DNA of 64,000 nt from a bacterium (lineage in GTDB: Bacteria > Oederibacteriota > Muellerivitia > Muellerivitales > Muellerivitaceae), in the NCBI GenBank assembly GCA_035549195.1, contig DASZRK010000012.1:62001-126000 (forward strand), given 5' to 3'. The notes under the pieces are model-generated. The model saw only the letters and a program-made list of their open reading frames with translations. It was not told the DNA's origin and did not search any database. The position numbers were made by a program, and so were the translations under genes. This document shows positions 53,517-59,525 of the stretch, in pieces. The first letter of the stretch is position 1; every line of letters starts with the position of its first letter.

Positions 53517-53963
53517 ATGAAGCGTTGGCTGGCGCTGGACCTCGGTCAAGTCCGCATCGGTGTGGCCCTGTCGGACCCGCTCGGGATCACGGCCCAACCC
53601 CTGACCGTCCTCAAGGCCGCCGGCACCCAAAAGGACATCATCGCTATCGGGGAGTTGGTCGACCAGAACCAGGTCACCCAGGTCATTGTGGGGCTTCCCC
53701 TCAACATGGACGGGACCGAAAGCACGACCACGCAGCGCGTCCGGGATTTCACCCGAAAACTTGCCGGGCGGTTGAGCGTTCCCGTCCTTTTCGTCGATGA
53801 ACGCCTGACCAGCAAGCAGGCCGAACGTATCATGATCGAAGGGGATACCCGCCGGGAGGACCGCCGGGAGAAGATCGATAAAGTGGCCGCCGCCCTCTTG
53901 TTGCAATCCGCCCTCCAGGGGGCGGCCCTGGTCCCGTTGGATCCCCCGAAGGAACAAGCATGA
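53517..53963 (+). CDS. ruvX: Holliday-junction resolvase-like RuvX (YqgF)
   Basis: The 148-residue RNase H-like protein begins WLALDLGQVRIGVALSDPLG with the first catalytic Asp. VIVGLPLNMDGTES (Glu/Asp region), VDERLTSKQAERIM and the final Asp in KIDKVAAALLLQ follow. Family members act in pre-16S rRNA maturation and may resolve junctions. GGGGGGA precedes ATG 53517 with good spacing. The stop overlaps mltG by ATGA, the common yqgF-mltG pair. Confidence 0.94.
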   Translation: MKRWLALDLGQVRIGVALSDPLGITAQPLTVLKAAGTQKDIIAIGELVDQNQVTQVIVGLPLNMDGTESTTTQRVRDFTRKLAGRLSVPVLFVDERLTSKQAERIMIEGDTRREDRREKIDKVAAALLLQSALQGAALVPLDPPKEQA

Positions 53964-54979
53964 AGATCCTCAAGATCTATGGTTATGTTTTCCTGGTCCT
54001 GTGCCTGGCGGGGACCTTCCTCTTCGTCCCGACCTTTTTCTTCCCCGGCCCCGAATCGGATGTCCCGGTCTATTCCAAGACCACGGCCCGCCAGATCGCC
54101 CAAAGCCTGGAGGAAAAAGGGATCATCCATTTTCCGGTGTTGTTCCGGGCCCTGGCCAAGTTCACCCACGCCGATCGGAAACTGAAGGCGGGTCTCTACC
54201 GGTTGAACCCCCGCATGAGCCTTTGGCAGGTCCTTTCCATCCTGGCGGAGGGCCGAAGCCAACTCCTGGCGCTCAAGGTCCCGGAAGGCTATACGGTCGA
54301 GCAGATCGGGAGGGAACTGGAACGGATGAAGGTCATGCCCATGACCGATTTTGTCGCGGCCGCCGAGGACAAGGAACTCCTGAAGGCCCTGGGCATCCCC
54401 GGCCCCAGCGCGGAGGGCTATCTTTTCCCCGAGACCTACCGGGTGCCGGTGGGCGCCAGCGCCCAAGCCTTGGTGGAGCTCATGGTCCGCCAATTCTTCG
54501 ATTCCGTCGGGGCCGATTTCGAACCCAAGGCACGGGCCAAGGGATTGAGCCCTTATCAAGCGGTCATCCTGGCTTCCATCGTCGAGAAGGAAACGGGGCG
54601 CGCCGAGGAAAGGCCGCTGGTGGCGGCAGTGCTCTATAACCGGCTCCACCAAAAGATAAGGTTGGAGGTCAACGCCACCCTCAATTACATCCTCTCCGAC
54701 AAGCGGGCTTGGCTGACCCATGAGCAGTTGGGCACCCAATCCCCCTACAACACCTACCAGCACCGGGGGCTCCCGCCGACCCCCATCTGCAATCCGGGTT
54801 TGGCGGCCTTACAGGCGACCCTGGATCCGGCCGAAGTTCCCTATCTTTTCTATGTCGCCAAGGGTGACGGGACCCAGCTTTTCTCCTCGACCTTGGCCGA
54901 GCATGACCGCAACGTAGCCCTGGCCAAAAGGATCCGCCATCAGCAGCGGCTCAAAAAAAAGCTGGAAGGGTCCCAATAG
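53960..54979 (+). CDS. mltG: Endolytic murein transglycosylase MltG
   Basis: The 339-residue membrane-anchored enzyme has one N-terminal helix (about 7-27), a LysM-like part with VPVYSKTTARQIAQSLEEKG, and the YceG catalytic domain. The latter holds AEGYLFPETYRVP and VILASIVEKETGRAEERP with the catalytic Glu of the EKE motif, and NTYQHRGLPPTPICNPG. MltG cuts nascent glycan chains and sets their length. ATG 53960 overlaps ruvX. The 120 bases after it show nothing notable before ftsE. Confidence 0.95.
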   Translation: MKILKIYGYVFLVLCLAGTFLFVPTFFFPGPESDVPVYSKTTARQIAQSLEEKGIIHFPVLFRALAKFTHADRKLKAGLYRLNPRMSLWQVLSILAEGRSQLLALKVPEGYTVEQIGRELERMKVMPMTDFVAAAEDKELLKALGIPGPSAEGYLFPETYRVPVGASAQALVELMVRQFFDSVGADFEPKARAKGLSPYQAVILASIVEKETGRAEERPLVAAVLYNRLHQKIRLEVNATLNYILSDKRAWLTHEQLGTQSPYNTYQHRGLPPTPICNPGLAALQATLDPAEVPYLFYVAKGDGTQLFSSTLAEHDRNVALAKRIRHQQRLKKKLEGSQ

Positions 54980-55100: not shown

Positions 55101-55790
55101 ATGATGATCCAGGCCTTCCACCTGACCAAGGTCCATCCTTCGGGCGTCAAGACGCTCGATGACGCCCATTTCTCCGCCACTGAGGGCTCTTTTACGGTGA
55201 TCGTGGGCGAAAGCCGCACCGGGAAAAGCACTTTCTTGCGGATCCTGGGCGGGGAGGAAAAGCCCACTTCGGGCGTGCTCCGCGTCGACCACAAGGATAT
55301 CCATTCCCTGAGCTCCCGGGAAAAGCGGGAATGGCTCTCGGAAGTGGGGTTGGTCCTCTCCGACCTCACCCTTTTTCCCGAAAAGACCGTGGAGGAGAAC
55401 ATCCTTTTCATCCTCCAGATGAAGGGCGCGGCGGGTGAAGGGGACCGGGAAGCCATCCGGAAGCTCTTGGCCAAGGCCGGCCTGGGTTCCAAGATCGGCG
55501 CCAAGCCCAAGGACCTTTCCTCCGGAGAGCATCGGATGGTACTGGCCTTGCGCTCCATGATCTTCCGGCCACGGTTGCTCCTGGCCGATGAGCCTTTCCA
55601 GGGATTGGACGAGGCGAGCGTGGCGGTCCTTTCCAAGTTCTTCCTGGAGCTCCATAAGGGCGGTTGCACCATCGTCCTTTCGACCCAGGAGGCATCCTTC
55701 CTCACCGAACTCCGGAAACAGGGAGCCCAGGGATCCATCCAGTGGACCAAGTTGGAAAAGGGCCGCTTGTGGCCCATGGAGGCCCTATGA
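55101..55790 (+). CDS. ftsE: FtsE-like cell-division ABC ATPase, degenerate motifs
   Basis: The 229-residue ABC protein lies directly before ftsX and shares FtsE length and Walker A (GESRTGKST, 36-44) and Walker B (LLLADEP, 159-165) motifs. Other catalytic motifs deviate. The Q-loop Gln is Ser87 (LVLSDLTLF against the usual FQD), the signature is LSSGEHR at 139-145 against LSGGEQQR, and the H-switch His is Gln196 (LSTQE against ATHD). The Glu after Walker B is kept. FtsE with FtsX gates EnvC-driven amidase activity; ATP binding is plausible here, efficient hydrolysis less so. It ends in an ATGA overlap with ftsX. Confidence 0.88.
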   Translation: MMIQAFHLTKVHPSGVKTLDDAHFSATEGSFTVIVGESRTGKSTFLRILGGEEKPTSGVLRVDHKDIHSLSSREKREWLSEVGLVLSDLTLFPEKTVEENILFILQMKGAAGEGDREAIRKLLAKAGLGSKIGAKPKDLSSGEHRMVLALRSMIFRPRLLLADEPFQGLDEASVAVLSKFFLELHKGGCTIVLSTQEASFLTELRKQGAQGSIQWTKLEKGRLWPMEAL

Positions 55791-56686
55791 ACCCCTCTCG
55801 CCTTTTTTATGTCCTCCGGGAAGGGTTGGCCCAGGTGCTGCGGGCCAAGGGCCTTTCGGCCGCCGTCATCGTCATCGTCGCCTCCACCTTGCTCCAGCTT
55901 TCGGTCTTCCTGGGAATCTCCAAGACCTTCGAGAGGGCCTTGGGAACGGCCCGGGAAAAATTCGAAATGGCGGTCTTCCTCACCGCCACCGCCGACAAGA
56001 CCGACCATCAGAGGATCCAGAACCTCCTGTTGGGCGACCCCCGGGTGGCTTCGGTGCGGTTGGTCACGAAGGAGGAGGCCCTGCAGGAGTTCCGCAAGGA
56101 TCCCGAGATCGACCGGATGCTGGATGCCCTGGACGAGAACCCACTGACCGATTCCTTCACGGTGGTCCTACGGCAGGATGTTTCCGGGAAGTTGGACGAT
56201 CTAGCGGGGACATTAAAGAGCGACCCGAGGGTCGAGGACGTGGATTATGGTAAGGGCGAGTGGGAAACGGTCTCCAATATCTCCCGCCTGGTCCGTTGGG
56301 GCGGGGTGGGCCTGGGTTCCCTGGTGTTCCTCGCGGCCCTTTTCATCGTTTCCAACACCCTGACGCTGGCCCTTTGGGCCCGCCGGGAGGACCTTCTGCT
56401 CATGGCACGCATGGGGGCCCCGGGATGGATGCAGAAGGGCCCTTACCTGGTCGAAGGGATCCTGCAAGGGCTCCTGGGTGCCCTACCGGTCCTGTTTTTC
56501 CTGGAGCTCCTGCGGCACGGTGTCGTGTTCGCGGCCCAGGAATGGGCGGGACTCCAGGCTTGGTTCGACCTGCCCCGTTCGGATTGGTGGGAGCTTTACG
56601 GGATCCTCCTGTTCCTCGGGACCATCCTGGGCTTCTTGGGGGCCTTCCTGGCCGTCCAAAAGAAATGGGTCCGGGAATTGAAGTGA
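55787..56686 (+). CDS. ftsX: Cell-division membrane protein FtsX
   Basis: The 299-residue protein has the FtsX layout. A first helix (about 24-46) is followed by a periplasmic loop (about 50-165) with MAVFLTATADKTDHQRI and VTKEEALQEFRKD, and then three more helices near 175-200, 225-250 and 268-290. FtsX transmits FtsE state across the membrane to EnvC-type amidase activators. ATG 55787 overlaps the ftsE stop. Confidence 0.93.
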   Translation: MNPSRLFYVLREGLAQVLRAKGLSAAVIVIVASTLLQLSVFLGISKTFERALGTAREKFEMAVFLTATADKTDHQRIQNLLLGDPRVASVRLVTKEEALQEFRKDPEIDRMLDALDENPLTDSFTVVLRQDVSGKLDDLAGTLKSDPRVEDVDYGKGEWETVSNISRLVRWGGVGLGSLVFLAALFIVSNTLTLALWARREDLLLMARMGAPGWMQKGPYLVEGILQGLLGALPVLFFLELLRHGVVFAAQEWAGLQAWFDLPRSDWWELYGILLFLGTILGFLGAFLAVQKKWVRELK

Positions 56687-56714
56687 GATCCATCCGCGCT
56701 GAAGGAAGGGCCGT

Positions 56715-57923
56715 TTGAAGACAATCCTCAAGATCTTCCTCCCCATGGCGTTGCTTGCGCCCGCCGTTCTTTCCGCCCAAGAAGCGGCCCCCACCCCCAG
56801 CTACCGCCAGATCAAGAAGAACCTCCGCCAACACAAGAAGGACCTGGACGCCATCCGCAAGAAGATCGACGAAGAAAAACGGAAGAAGCATATCGATGAG
56901 GTCCGGGAGAAAAGGACCCTCGGCCGATTGGAACAGGTGGACCGTGCCTTGGGGAGATTGAAACGGGAAAAGGAGGTCAACCAAGCCGACCTCCAGGAGA
57001 CCCGGACGCGGCTTTCCGCGTTGTTGGACCGTAAAGCCCTCAATGAGAAGGACCTGGCGGCCAGCCGGGCCCTGTTGAAAAAAAGGCTCCGGGACCTTAA
57101 CCGCATGTCCTTCCGCAAGCCCTTCCTCGGCGGGCTCCTGGACTCGGAGAACTTCAGCGAACTTTCCCGTAAACTCCGGTTCGAACTGATGCTCGCCCAG
57201 AGCAATGAAAAGATATTGAACGCCACCCTTTCCCAAAAGGACCGCTTGGACAGGTCCACCGCCCTTTGGGACAGCGAGCAACGCCGGAAAGAAAGGGTGT
57301 TGGGGGCCCTGGGCCGCCAGGAAAAGAACTATTCCCGGGAAAAAAAGAACCGGACCCGGATCCTGGCCTCCATCCAAAAGAAAAAAGAAGACCACGAACG
57401 TTATATCGAGGAGCTCAACCAAGCCGCCCGGGAGCTCCAGGAGAAGGTCTCGGTCTTCCTCAAACAGGCGGAAGAAGCCCAGAAACAGAAAGCCGCTTGG
57501 GTGCCCGCCGGGAAGGGCCTGGCCTCCGGCCGGGGACGACTGGCTTGGCCGGTGTCCGGACAGGTCATCCAGCACTTCGGGCACCGCAAGAACGTCCAAT
57601 TCAAAGAGGTGGTGGATAACAGCGGTATCCAGATCCAGGCCGACGCCGGAACGCCCATCAAGGCCATCGCCGGCGGCAAGGTCCGTTTCGCCGATTGGTT
57701 CAAAGGTTATGGAAAACTGGTGATTTTGGACCATGGGGAAGGGTATTATTCCATCTACGCCCAAGCCTCGGAATTGGCCGTGGCCGAGGGCCAAACCGTG
57801 GCTTCCGGTCAGGTCATCGGCGCCGTGGGGGATACGGGTTCCCTGGTCGGGAACAGTCTCTATTTCGAGATCCGCAAGAACGGCATTCCCCAAGACCCCC
57901 TTCTTTGGCTCAAGCCCCGCTAG
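56715..57923 (+). CDS. envC: EnvC-like amidase activator (degenerate LytM/M23)
   Basis: The 402-residue periplasmic protein has a signal peptide (about 1-21, before AQEAA), a long charged coiled coil (about 27-265) and a C-terminal LytM fold (about 275-400). In active M23 peptidases the zinc ligands include the His of YAH and HLH; here these read YAQ (Gln350) and NSLYFE (Ser381, Tyr383). The same SLYFEIR ending is found in E. coli EnvC, which has no peptidase activity and instead switches on amidases. Position right after ftsEX agrees. The start is TTG 56715. Confidence 0.92.
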   Translation: MKTILKIFLPMALLAPAVLSAQEAAPTPSYRQIKKNLRQHKKDLDAIRKKIDEEKRKKHIDEVREKRTLGRLEQVDRALGRLKREKEVNQADLQETRTRLSALLDRKALNEKDLAASRALLKKRLRDLNRMSFRKPFLGGLLDSENFSELSRKLRFELMLAQSNEKILNATLSQKDRLDRSTALWDSEQRRKERVLGALGRQEKNYSREKKNRTRILASIQKKKEDHERYIEELNQAARELQEKVSVFLKQAEEAQKQKAAWVPAGKGLASGRGRLAWPVSGQVIQHFGHRKNVQFKEVVDNSGIQIQADAGTPIKAIAGGKVRFADWFKGYGKLVILDHGEGYYSIYAQASELAVAEGQTVASGQVIGAVGDTGSLVGNSLYFEIRKNGIPQDPLLWLKPR

Positions 57924-57968: not shown

Positions 57969-59525
57969 ATGGATCGTCGTCCATCACCCTGGAAAGTGAC
58001 CCTTTTGCTCCTGGCCCTTTGCGGGGTCAGTTTCGCCGCCGGGGTGGCCACCCAATCCATCAGCCAAAAGAAGGCCGACCAAGAGGATGTCTATAAATAC
58101 CTCCAGCCCTTCGCGGACGCGCTGGCGATCATCCGCGAGAAATACGTGGATGTGGACAAGACCGATCCCAAGGCCCTCGTTTACGGGGCCCTGAACGGCA
58201 TGGTCAATACCCTGGACCCCTTCAGCCAGTTCATGCCGCCGGACCAGTTCAAGGACATGCAGACCGAGACCTCCGGCAAGTTCGGGGGGCTGGGCATCGA
58301 GATCGCCATGAAGGACGAGCGGCTGACCATCATTTCCCCCATCGAAGGGACCCCGGCGGACCGGGCGGGCCTGAAGGCGGGGGACCGTATCGTCAAGATC
58401 AACGACATCACGACCCTGGGCATGACCATCAACGACGCCGTCAAGCGCCTGCGCGGCAAGGTGGGGACCAAGGTCACGATCTCCGTCCTGCGGGACGGCC
58501 TGGCCGAACCCTTCGACGTGACCCTGGTACGGGACAACATCAAGATCGAGAGCATCCACGCCTATATGCTGCCCCATGACATCGGTTATGTGCGCATCTC
58601 GGAGTTCATCGACAACACCACCGATGATTTCATCAACGCCGTCCACAAGCTCCAGGAACAGCATGCCCTGAAGGGCCTGGTGGTGGACCTGCGCAACGAT
58701 CCGGGCGGTCTTTTGAACGAGGCCATTGGGGTCTCCGATTATTTCGGAAAACCGGGGGATATGATCGTCTCCACCAAGGGACGCAGTGAATACCAGACCC
58801 AGGAATACAAGGCGTCCAACGGTGAGAAGTTCGATGAAAAGAAGCCGGTGGTGGTCATGGTCAACGAGGGAAGCGCTTCGGGCGCCGAGATCGTGTCGGG
58901 GGCCTTGAAGGACTGGAAAAGGGCCGTCCTAATCGGTTCCAAGACCTTCGGCAAGGGGTCGGTCCAGACCATCCTGCCCCTGGAGGGCAGCGATGGGGCG
59001 GCCCTGCGGCTCACCATGGCCAAGTACTACACGCCCTCGGGCGTCTGCATCCACGGCATCGGGATCAACCCGGACCTGGACCTGCGGGGGCATGACCTTT
59101 CCGAATCGACCCTGAAGGTCTACAGCAAGCAGATGCCCGAGAAGTTCGCCGAGGAGAAGGTGAAAACGGGCCTCCCGGCCGGCGCGGACAACGAAGTGAC
59201 CCCGGCGCTCATGAACGAATTCCTCGATTATTGCGTGAAGAACGTGAAGAAGGTGGACCTGGAGGAACTGAAAAAGGACAAGGATTATCTGTCCGACAGC
59301 CTCTACGTGGAGCTGATGCAGGAAAAGGTGGGGGAAAAGAAGGCCCGCGAATTGGCCGTGATCCACGATCCGCAGGTGAAGGTGGCCGAGGAGATCGTTG
59401 AGAACGGGGGCCGTATCAGCAAGGATCTTTACGCCAAATACCCAAAACGCAGGGATGATGAGAAGGCCGGCGAGAAGAAGCTGGAAGAACAAAGGGCCAA
59501 CAAGCACGGGGATGACGGAGAATAG
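57969..59525 (+). CDS. ctpA: C-terminal processing peptidase CtpA (S41)
   Basis: The 518-residue secreted serine protease has an N-terminal signal or anchor helix (about 9-27) and a PDZ domain with GLGIEIAMKDERLTIISPIEG (about 100-185). The S41 core follows with VVDLRNDPGGLLNEAI, catalytic Ser304 in NEGSASGAEIVSGAL and catalytic Lys329/Gln333 in KTFGKGSVQ. A charged C-terminal extension of about 130 residues ends the protein. CtpA trims periplasmic targets such as cell-wall hydrolases. The envC-ctpA-yibQ order is known from proteobacteria. Confidence 0.95.
   Translation: MDRRPSPWKVTLLLLALCGVSFAAGVATQSISQKKADQEDVYKYLQPFADALAIIREKYVDVDKTDPKALVYGALNGMVNTLDPFSQFMPPDQFKDMQTETSGKFGGLGIEIAMKDERLTIISPIEGTPADRAGLKAGDRIVKINDITTLGMTINDAVKRLRGKVGTKVTISVLRDGLAEPFDVTLVRDNIKIESIHAYMLPHDIGYVRISEFIDNTTDDFINAVHKLQEQHALKGLVVDLRNDPGGLLNEAIGVSDYFGKPGDMIVSTKGRSEYQTQEYKASNGEKFDEKKPVVVMVNEGSASGAEIVSGALKDWKRAVLIGSKTFGKGSVQTILPLEGSDGAALRLTMAKYYTPSGVCIHGIGINPDLDLRGHDLSESTLKVYSKQMPEKFAEEKVKTGLPAGADNEVTPALMNEFLDYCVKNVKKVDLEELKKDKDYLSDSLYVELMQEKVGEKKARELAVIHDPQVKVAEEIVENGGRISKDLYAKYPKRRDDEKAGEKKLEEQRANKHGDDGE

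What the first reader, a model, noticed from the sequence alone, without database searches (positions are those of the whole stretch)
55101..57923. FtsEX-EnvC module with a degenerate FtsE
FtsE keeps Walker A and B but has Ser87 for the Q-loop Gln, LSSGEHR for the signature and Gln196 for the H-switch His. The partner EnvC-like protein lacks the LytM zinc ligands, as E. coli EnvC does. FtsEX-driven amidase activation normally needs ATP hydrolysis, so this lineage may use ATP binding alone or a changed cycle.
Basis: partly seen in the sequence, partly recalled or inferred. Interest (0 to 1): 0.55.

Follow-up and report, generated by a model that had tools for sequence, protein, structure and literature searches.

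The report
Cell-division FtsE with decayed ATPase site
In a family of uncultured bacteria the motor subunit of a cell-separation switch has kept its shape and its place in the operon but lost much of its ATP-burning site, and similar losses turn up in other bacteria, so this switch may not always need its motor.

Summary
The FtsE homologue (55101-55790) keeps Walker A and B but has Ser87, LSSGEHR and Gln196 where canonical FtsE has the Q-loop Gln, LSGGE and the switch His. It is not an error: 8 of 8 held genomes of its family (candidate division FCPU426) lack the Gln and the His, the catalytic Glu is Asp in 6 of 8, and one genus has lost Walker A. The order-mate keeps the Gln but lacks the His. 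No FtsE over the family's cut-off was found elsewhere in these nine genomes. The gene is under purifying selection and is predicted to fold as an ABC domain; FtsX, an EnvC without zinc ligands and an amidase remain. Two sister families have no FtsE beside FtsX-EnvC. Outside the phylum, 11 of 85 FtsX-positive genomes have an FtsE-like protein beside FtsX without the switch His. Best reading: a pseudo-ATPase scaffold that recruits FtsX-EnvC, no longer driven by ATP turnover. 'ATP binding alone' fits the window but not the Walker-A-less genus. No biochemistry was possible. FtsX-EnvC without FtsE was already reported in Fusobacterium; I found no report of recurrent FtsE decay in the open-licence library.

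The parts
55101..55790 (+). FtsE homologue with degenerate ATPase site (229 aa)
   Evidence: best NCBIfam model TIGR02673 131.9 bits, below the curated cut-off of 264.85; AF2 pLDDT 89.7; top Foldseek hit 8ymc FtsEX
55134..55136 (+). A-loop position, His12 instead of the Tyr/Phe of the canonical FtsEs of the phylum
55206..55232 (+). Walker A GESRTGKST, intact here, lost in sister genus G004
55332..55340 (+). Trp78 (invariant in 9 of 9 f1+f2 FtsEs) and Leu79-Ser80 replacing the two arginines that contact the FtsX coupling helices in E. coli
   Evidence: E. coli contacts from PMC11491553 passage
55359..55361 (+). Q-loop position, Ser87 instead of Gln
55515..55535 (+). Signature LSSGEHR instead of LSGGEQQ
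55575..55595 (+). Walker B LLLADEP with Glu164 kept here (Asp in 6 of 8 family members)
55686..55688 (+). H-switch position, Gln196 instead of His
55787..56686 (+). FtsX, overlapping ftsE by 4 bases
   Evidence: PF18075 FtsX_ECD above gathering score
55964..56242 (+). FtsX periplasmic domain
   Evidence: PF18075 residues 60-152
56715..57923 (+). EnvC-like protein with a LytM domain without zinc ligands
57618..57863 (+). LytM stretch holding Asn302, Gln306 and Tyr383 at the zinc-ligand positions
53960..54979 (+). Upstream neighbour, MltG-like lytic transglycosylase (name from recall of the sequence type)
57969..59525 (+). Downstream neighbour, C-terminal processing protease (name from recall of the sequence type)

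Best explanation
The window encodes an FtsEX-EnvC module in which FtsE has become a conserved pseudo-ATPase. It still folds as an ABC domain and is still made with FtsX from overlapping genes, but ATP turnover is no longer what drives the module. Most likely FtsE now acts as a structural and positioning subunit. It holds the FtsX dimer together through a remodelled contact (Trp78-Leu-Ser in place of the coupling arginines) and tethers it to the division ring. FtsX recruits EnvC to the septum, and EnvC, itself without zinc ligands, switches on the amidase encoded in the dcw cluster. Shown: the substitutions, their family-wide conservation, purifying selection, the predicted fold, the partners, and no second FtsE over the cut-off. 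Inferred: loss of ATP hydrolysis, the scaffold role, recruitment-based control of EnvC, the link to the ring, and which amidase is the target.
For: Q-loop Gln and switch His absent in 8 of 8 f1 genomes. Catalytic Glu is Asp in 6 of 8, so that position is not held to one residue. Walker A abolished in G004, whose protein is still predicted as an ABC domain. No FtsE over the cut-off in any of the 9 f1+f2 genomes; the five other best candidates tested there have LolD, not FtsE, as best model. FtsE dN/dS 0.09-0.20 in six f1 pairs. FtsE distance relative to FtsX is 1.09 in f1 against 0.31-0.86 in five canonical families, and relative to ribosomal proteins 2.75 against 0.77-1.46: relaxed but not abandoned. 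Partners kept: FtsX ECD and LytM, FtsA over cut-off in 7 of 8 f1 genomes, FtsA-FtsZ-amidase cluster, amidase with AmiA as best solved match. Families f4 and f12 have FtsX-EnvC with no FtsE beside it. In E. coli, EnvC recruitment rather than hydrolysis suffices for separation when the FtsA link is uncoupled and NlpD is present (PMC7343993).
Against: No biochemistry. The window protein keeps Walker A, Asp163, Glu164 and the signature Ser and Gly, and some ABC proteins are said to hydrolyse ATP without the switch His (recalled, no call). Seven of 8 f1 members keep the Walker A Lys, which suggests that nucleotide binding still matters in most of the family. FtsA is still present, and in E. coli a hydrolysis-dead FtsEX blocks septal synthesis through FtsA (PMC7343993), so that link would have to be rewired; not tested. 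Whether an NlpD-like second activator exists here was not tested. FtsX also evolves fast relative to ribosomal proteins in f1 (2.51 against 1.41-2.66 in five canonical families), so part of the FtsE speed-up may be shared by the module. The second coupling arginine is not universal: 5 of 69 otherwise canonical FtsEs outside the phylum have Lys or Gln there. The FtsE-FtsX complex was not modelled. A different ABC protein could serve FtsX in trans, as PMC5915739 speculates for Fusobacterium; not excluded.
Confidence: 0.66

Rival explanations
1. Binding-only switch: FtsE still binds ATP and dimerises, which activates EnvC; hydrolysis is very slow or absent and the system resets by exchange or turnover of the complex.
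For: Walker A, Asp163, Glu164, Ser140 and Gly142 intact in the window; Walker A Lys kept in 7 of 8 f1 and in f2. PMC12505981 passages: ATP binding drives EnvC activation and hydrolysis resets it.
Against: G004 has no Walker A; A-loop aromatic residue lost in 9 of 9 and Q-loop Gln in 8 of 9 f1+f2 proteins; the arginines that contact the FtsX coupling helices in E. coli are replaced.
Confidence: 0.2
2. Active but re-tuned ATPase: Ser87 and Gln196 are tolerated and the protein still hydrolyses ATP with altered kinetics or coupling.
For: Glu164 and Walker A intact in the window; dN/dS shows a working gene.
Against: Concerted change at A-loop, Q-loop, signature, catalytic Glu (6 of 8), H-switch and coupling contacts; Walker A gone in one genus; the 22 canonical rows of the phylum all keep K, RR, Q, D, E and H.
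Confidence: 0.09
3. Transitional decay: FtsE is on the way out, as in families f4 and f12, and has no important role left.
For: Faster evolution than in canonical families; absence beside FtsX in f4 and f12.
Against: dN/dS 0.09-0.20; 37 invariant columns across the nine f1+f2 proteins, Trp78 among them; open frames in all nine genomes.
Confidence: 0.05

Closest known systems
FtsEX-EnvC-AmiA/B of Escherichia coli
   Same: FtsE-FtsX gene pair, FtsX periplasmic domain, LytM without zinc ligands, an AmiA/AmiC-like amidase in the genome
   Different: E. coli FtsE has the Q-loop Gln, switch His, catalytic Glu and coupling arginines, and hydrolysis-dead mutants are defective in division (PMC11491553 and PMC7343993, passages). 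In E. coli envC does not lie beside ftsX (recalled); here it does
FtsX-EnvC without FtsE in Fusobacterium nucleatum
   Same: FtsX and EnvC without an FtsE gene at the locus (PMC5915739, passages); like families f4 and f12 and genome G066 here
   Different: The window still has an FtsE homologue, under purifying selection, next to FtsX
Degenerate nucleotide-binding sites of heterodimeric ABC exporters
   Same: ABC sites with changed catalytic residues kept in a working complex (PMC7756269, PMC12038006: search-listing abstracts only)
   Different: There one of two sites is degenerate and the other works; FtsE acts as a dimer (review passage) and would here have two identical degenerate sites (inference)

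Membership tests
FtsE equivalog (TIGR02673) | Score above the curated cut-off | tested here: not met
   131.9 bits against 264.85; still the best-scoring NCBIfam model, next LolD at 102.2
FtsE equivalog (TIGR02673) | Gene adjacent to ftsX | tested here: met
   4-base overlap at 55787; FtsE homologue beside FtsX in 8 of 8 f1 genomes
FtsE equivalog (TIGR02673) | Complete ABC motifs incl. Q-loop Gln and switch His | tested here: not met
FtsE equivalog (TIGR02673) | ATPase activity | not testable with these tools
   needs purified protein
ABC nucleotide-binding domain (PF00005) | Profile over gathering score and ABC fold | tested here: met
   86 bits against 25; AF2 model, Foldseek top hit 8ymc FtsEX E 3.1e-19, with YbbA and LolD close behind, so the fold alone does not single out FtsE
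FtsX | FtsX periplasmic domain PF18075 | tested here: met
   56.7 bits against 23.5
FtsX | TIGR00439 equivalog cut-off | tested here: not met
   169.5 bits against 255; best of the three FtsX models
EnvC-type amidase activator | LytM domain without zinc ligands | tested here: met
   PF01551 106.3 bits against 28.7; Asn302, Gln306, Tyr383
EnvC-type amidase activator | N-terminal coiled coil that binds FtsX | tested here: inconclusive
   phmmer aligns residues 67-400 to full-length EnvC 8tzk, but the best match 8i6o scores only in the LytM part; no coiled-coil prediction was run
EnvC-type amidase activator | NF008644 equivalog cut-off | tested here: not met
   97.2 bits against 270, best model
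EnvC-type amidase activator | Activates an amidase | not testable with these tools
   candidate amidase at L135:6612-8075

The most novel reading that the evidence does not exclude
FtsEX is at root a recruiter of hydrolase activators, and its ATPase is an add-on checkpoint that bacteria can lose. Decay of FtsE (switch His lost, often with the signature, catalytic Glu or Walker A) or its complete loss has happened repeatedly in lineages that keep FtsX and EnvC, so ATP turnover is not a general requirement for EnvC-dependent cell separation.
Probability: 0.4. Interest if true: 0.75.

Novelty: new variant of a known kind. Interest (0 to 1): 0.6.

Why it matters
FtsEX is described as an ATP-driven switch that opens EnvC. 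A family that keeps the whole module while its ATPase site decays in stages, with relatives that have no FtsE beside FtsX, makes the question of what hydrolysis is for testable with natural variants instead of mutants. It also warns against annotating every FtsX-adjacent ABC protein as an ATPase.

Tried and rejected
Sequencing or strain error: rejected, since eight genomes of the family share the changes; seven of them carry record titles from several differently named isolates and assemblies (two share the prefix JOPF). Hidden second FtsE: none over the cut-off in the 9 f1+f2 genomes. Limits: four of the nine (G001, G002, G004, G006) had 61-75 candidates of which 57 were scored, and G003 is 65% complete. 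I tested ten of the best other candidates, five from f1/f2 (L078-L081, L087; 200-220 bits for the FtsE model) and five from f4/f12 (L082-L086): none has FtsE as best model; LolD or MacB is best in all ten, below their cut-offs too. Loss of FtsA as the reason the ATPase became dispensable: rejected, FtsA is over cut-off in 7 of 8 f1 genomes (the miss is G003) and in 8 of the 9 f4+f12 genomes (the miss is G030). Loss of amidases: rejected, an Amidase_3 protein is present in 45 of 45 genomes. A single origin of the decay within the phylum: not decided, the ribosomal-protein tree has an unresolved backbone and long branches (42 of 45 genomes, three without an rplB hit). Number of independent losses outside the phylum: not decided; an FtsX tree needs 10 changes of the label 'His lost', but its well-supported branches force only 2, and many branches are long (G099 left out, its contig begins just before FtsX). 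Codon-based dS is above 1 in five of the six f1 pairs; only G002-G007 (dS 0.58) is comfortably below.

Searches for prior reports: (PMC open-licence library only; most subscription papers and all preprints are missing from it). No listing described degenerate FtsE. I saw the abstract and passages of PMC7343993 and passages of PMC11627006, PMC12505981, PMC5915739, PMC5607218, PMC3885570 and PMC11491553; every other paper was seen as a search listing only.

Full report
What is there. The window lies in contig 12 of genome G000. Of the eight named relatives, six are MAGs titled candidate division FCPU426 and two carry other labels, 'bacterium' and 'Proteobacteria bacterium'. Gene order on the + strand is an MltG-like gene, FtsE homologue (55101-55790), FtsX (from 55787), EnvC-like (56715-57923), then a C-terminal processing protease (MltG and protease names from recall). 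FtsE, FtsX and EnvC models are the best NCBIfam matches, all below their strict equivalog cut-offs; the Pfam domains ABC_tran, FtsX_ECD and Peptidase_M23 are over theirs.

The ATPase site. Against solved FtsE chains, the window keeps Walker A, Walker B with Glu164, and the signature Ser and Gly. It lacks the Q-loop Gln (Ser87), the switch His (Gln196), the first signature Gly (Ser141) and the A-loop aromatic residue (His12). It also lacks both arginines that contact the FtsX coupling helices in E. coli (Leu79, Ser80) (E. coli contacts from passages of PMC11491553). Trp78 just before them is invariant in all 9 FtsEs of the family and its order-mate.

Family-wide, not a fluke. All 8 held f1 genomes have FtsE next to FtsX with Ser or Pro for the Q-loop Gln and Gln or Arg for the switch His. 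The catalytic Glu is kept in G000 and G003 and is Asp in the other six. G004 has SENVLAATA in place of Walker A. The order-mate G008 keeps the Q-loop Gln but has LSFSE, Asp for Glu and Leu at the switch. In the same phylum, the 22 full-length canonical FtsEs all keep K, RR, Q, D, E and H (one, G039, has Cys for the first signature Gly); G012 is canonical too and G035 is canonical in the part present.

Phylum tally (45 genomes held): canonical FtsE beside FtsX 24; degenerate 12 (f1 8, f2 1, f7 1, f5 2); no FtsE beside FtsX 8 (f4: G010, G016, G021, G030; f12: G024, G033, G036, G038); FtsX not located 1 (G027). In seven of the eight without FtsE the place before FtsX holds a cNMP-binding/HTH protein (Pfam-tested in three; the others read by eye). 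In G021 a long frame with a weak ABC match, UvrA-like by its place in its relatives, comes directly before a contig-cut FtsX. TIGR02673 is over its cut-off in 17 of the 39 genomes, and in none of f1, f2, f4, f5, f7 or f12. Ten of the best other candidates from f1, f2, f4 and f12 have LolD or MacB, not FtsE, as best model.

Still a working gene. dN/dS of FtsE is 0.09-0.20 in six f1 pairs; five of the six have dS above 1, and the least saturated pair gives 0.12. Its distance relative to FtsX is 1.09 in f1 against 0.31-0.86 in five canonical families, and relative to ribosomal proteins 2.75 against 0.77-1.46; FtsX itself is also fast in f1, 2.51 against 1.41-2.66. Relaxation, not abandonment. AF2 gives a confident ABC fold for the window protein (pLDDT 89.7) and for the Walker-A-less one (88.1). 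The closest solved fold of the former is FtsE in 8ymc, with YbbA and LolD close behind.

Partners. FtsX keeps its periplasmic domain. EnvC has Asn302, Gln306 and Tyr383 at the zinc-ligand positions. The dcw cluster holds FtsA, FtsZ and an amidase. Its catalytic part matches AmiA 8c2o best (E 2.6e-27) and AmiC 4bin (9.5e-27), aligned across the stretch between the two halves; CwlV 1jwq scores about as well (3.4e-27) but only in two pieces without that stretch. That this makes it an activator-controlled amidase is inference. FtsA is over cut-off in 7 of 8 f1 genomes.

Beyond the phylum. The same 192 genomes were searched with both families; 147 lie outside the phylum, with different family codes in the rows printed. 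Of these, 85 have FtsX_ECD; 64 of the 85 have an FtsE hit at E 1e-70 or better and 21 do not. I read 69 strong FtsEs, all the outside genomes with such a hit, including five without an FtsX_ECD match: 69 of 69 keep Walker A Lys, Q, D and E, and 68 of 68 readable keep the switch His. Of the 21, 17 have an FtsE-like protein beside FtsX, 3 have none (G066, G121, G137) and 1 is at a contig start (G099). Among the 17, 11 lack the switch His (G051, G053, G083, G110, G122, G139, G159, G172, G180, G186, G190) and 6 keep it (G057, G068, G080, G165, G169, G185). Three of the 11 also have Asp or Gln for the catalytic Glu (G053, G083, G122). Eight of these 11, plus G004 and G017 of the phylum, were sent to NCBIfam: all ten have FtsE as best model, all below cut-off. 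Limits: one search scored only the 14 best candidates per genome, so a second FtsE is less well excluded there, and the number of independent losses is unresolved.

Mechanism. PMC7343993 (abstract and passages) separates two uses of hydrolysis in E. coli: lifting an FtsA-linked block of septal synthesis, and optimal EnvC activity. Recruitment of EnvC alone gives cell separation when NlpD is present. PMC12505981 (passages) assigns activation to ATP binding and reset to hydrolysis. The window's lineage fits a module in which recruitment is kept and the ATP-driven part has decayed. FtsX-EnvC without an FtsE at the locus was reported for F. nucleatum, whose authors suggest that another ABC protein may stand in (PMC5915739, passages), and PMC5607218 (passage) infers an FtsE-independent function of FtsX in Caulobacter. 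What is new here, as far as my searches show (open-licence PMC only), is a conserved FtsE pseudo-ATPase and its recurrence.

Noticed in passing
L025, L029, L030, L071-L074: Families f4 and f12 of the phylum carry a Crp-like cNMP-binding/HTH gene directly before FtsX-EnvC where FtsE would be expected (Pfam-tested in L025, L029 and L030).
   Followed up: partly
L076:2204-3016 (-) and L077:667-1404 (+): Family f5 has an extremely decayed FtsE-like protein (no Walker B Glu-Pro or switch His alignable; Walker A Lys replaced by Gln in L077) beside a diverged FtsX; no EnvC match in either 4-kb stretch.
   Followed up: partly
L024:682-1389 (+): Family f7 FtsE keeps the coupling arginines, Q-loop Gln and catalytic Glu but has an LARGE signature and Lys at the switch position: a milder form of the same decay.
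   Followed up: no
L139:103-2908 (-): Genome G066 has FtsX, EnvC and what looks by eye like an NAD kinase gene in a row with no FtsE, which resembles the locus described for Fusobacterium nucleatum.
   Followed up: no
L135:2664-8075 (+): FtsA, FtsZ, a polysaccharide-deacetylase-like gene (by eye) and an AmiA/AmiC-like amidase lie together in the dcw cluster of the window's genome.
   Followed up: partly
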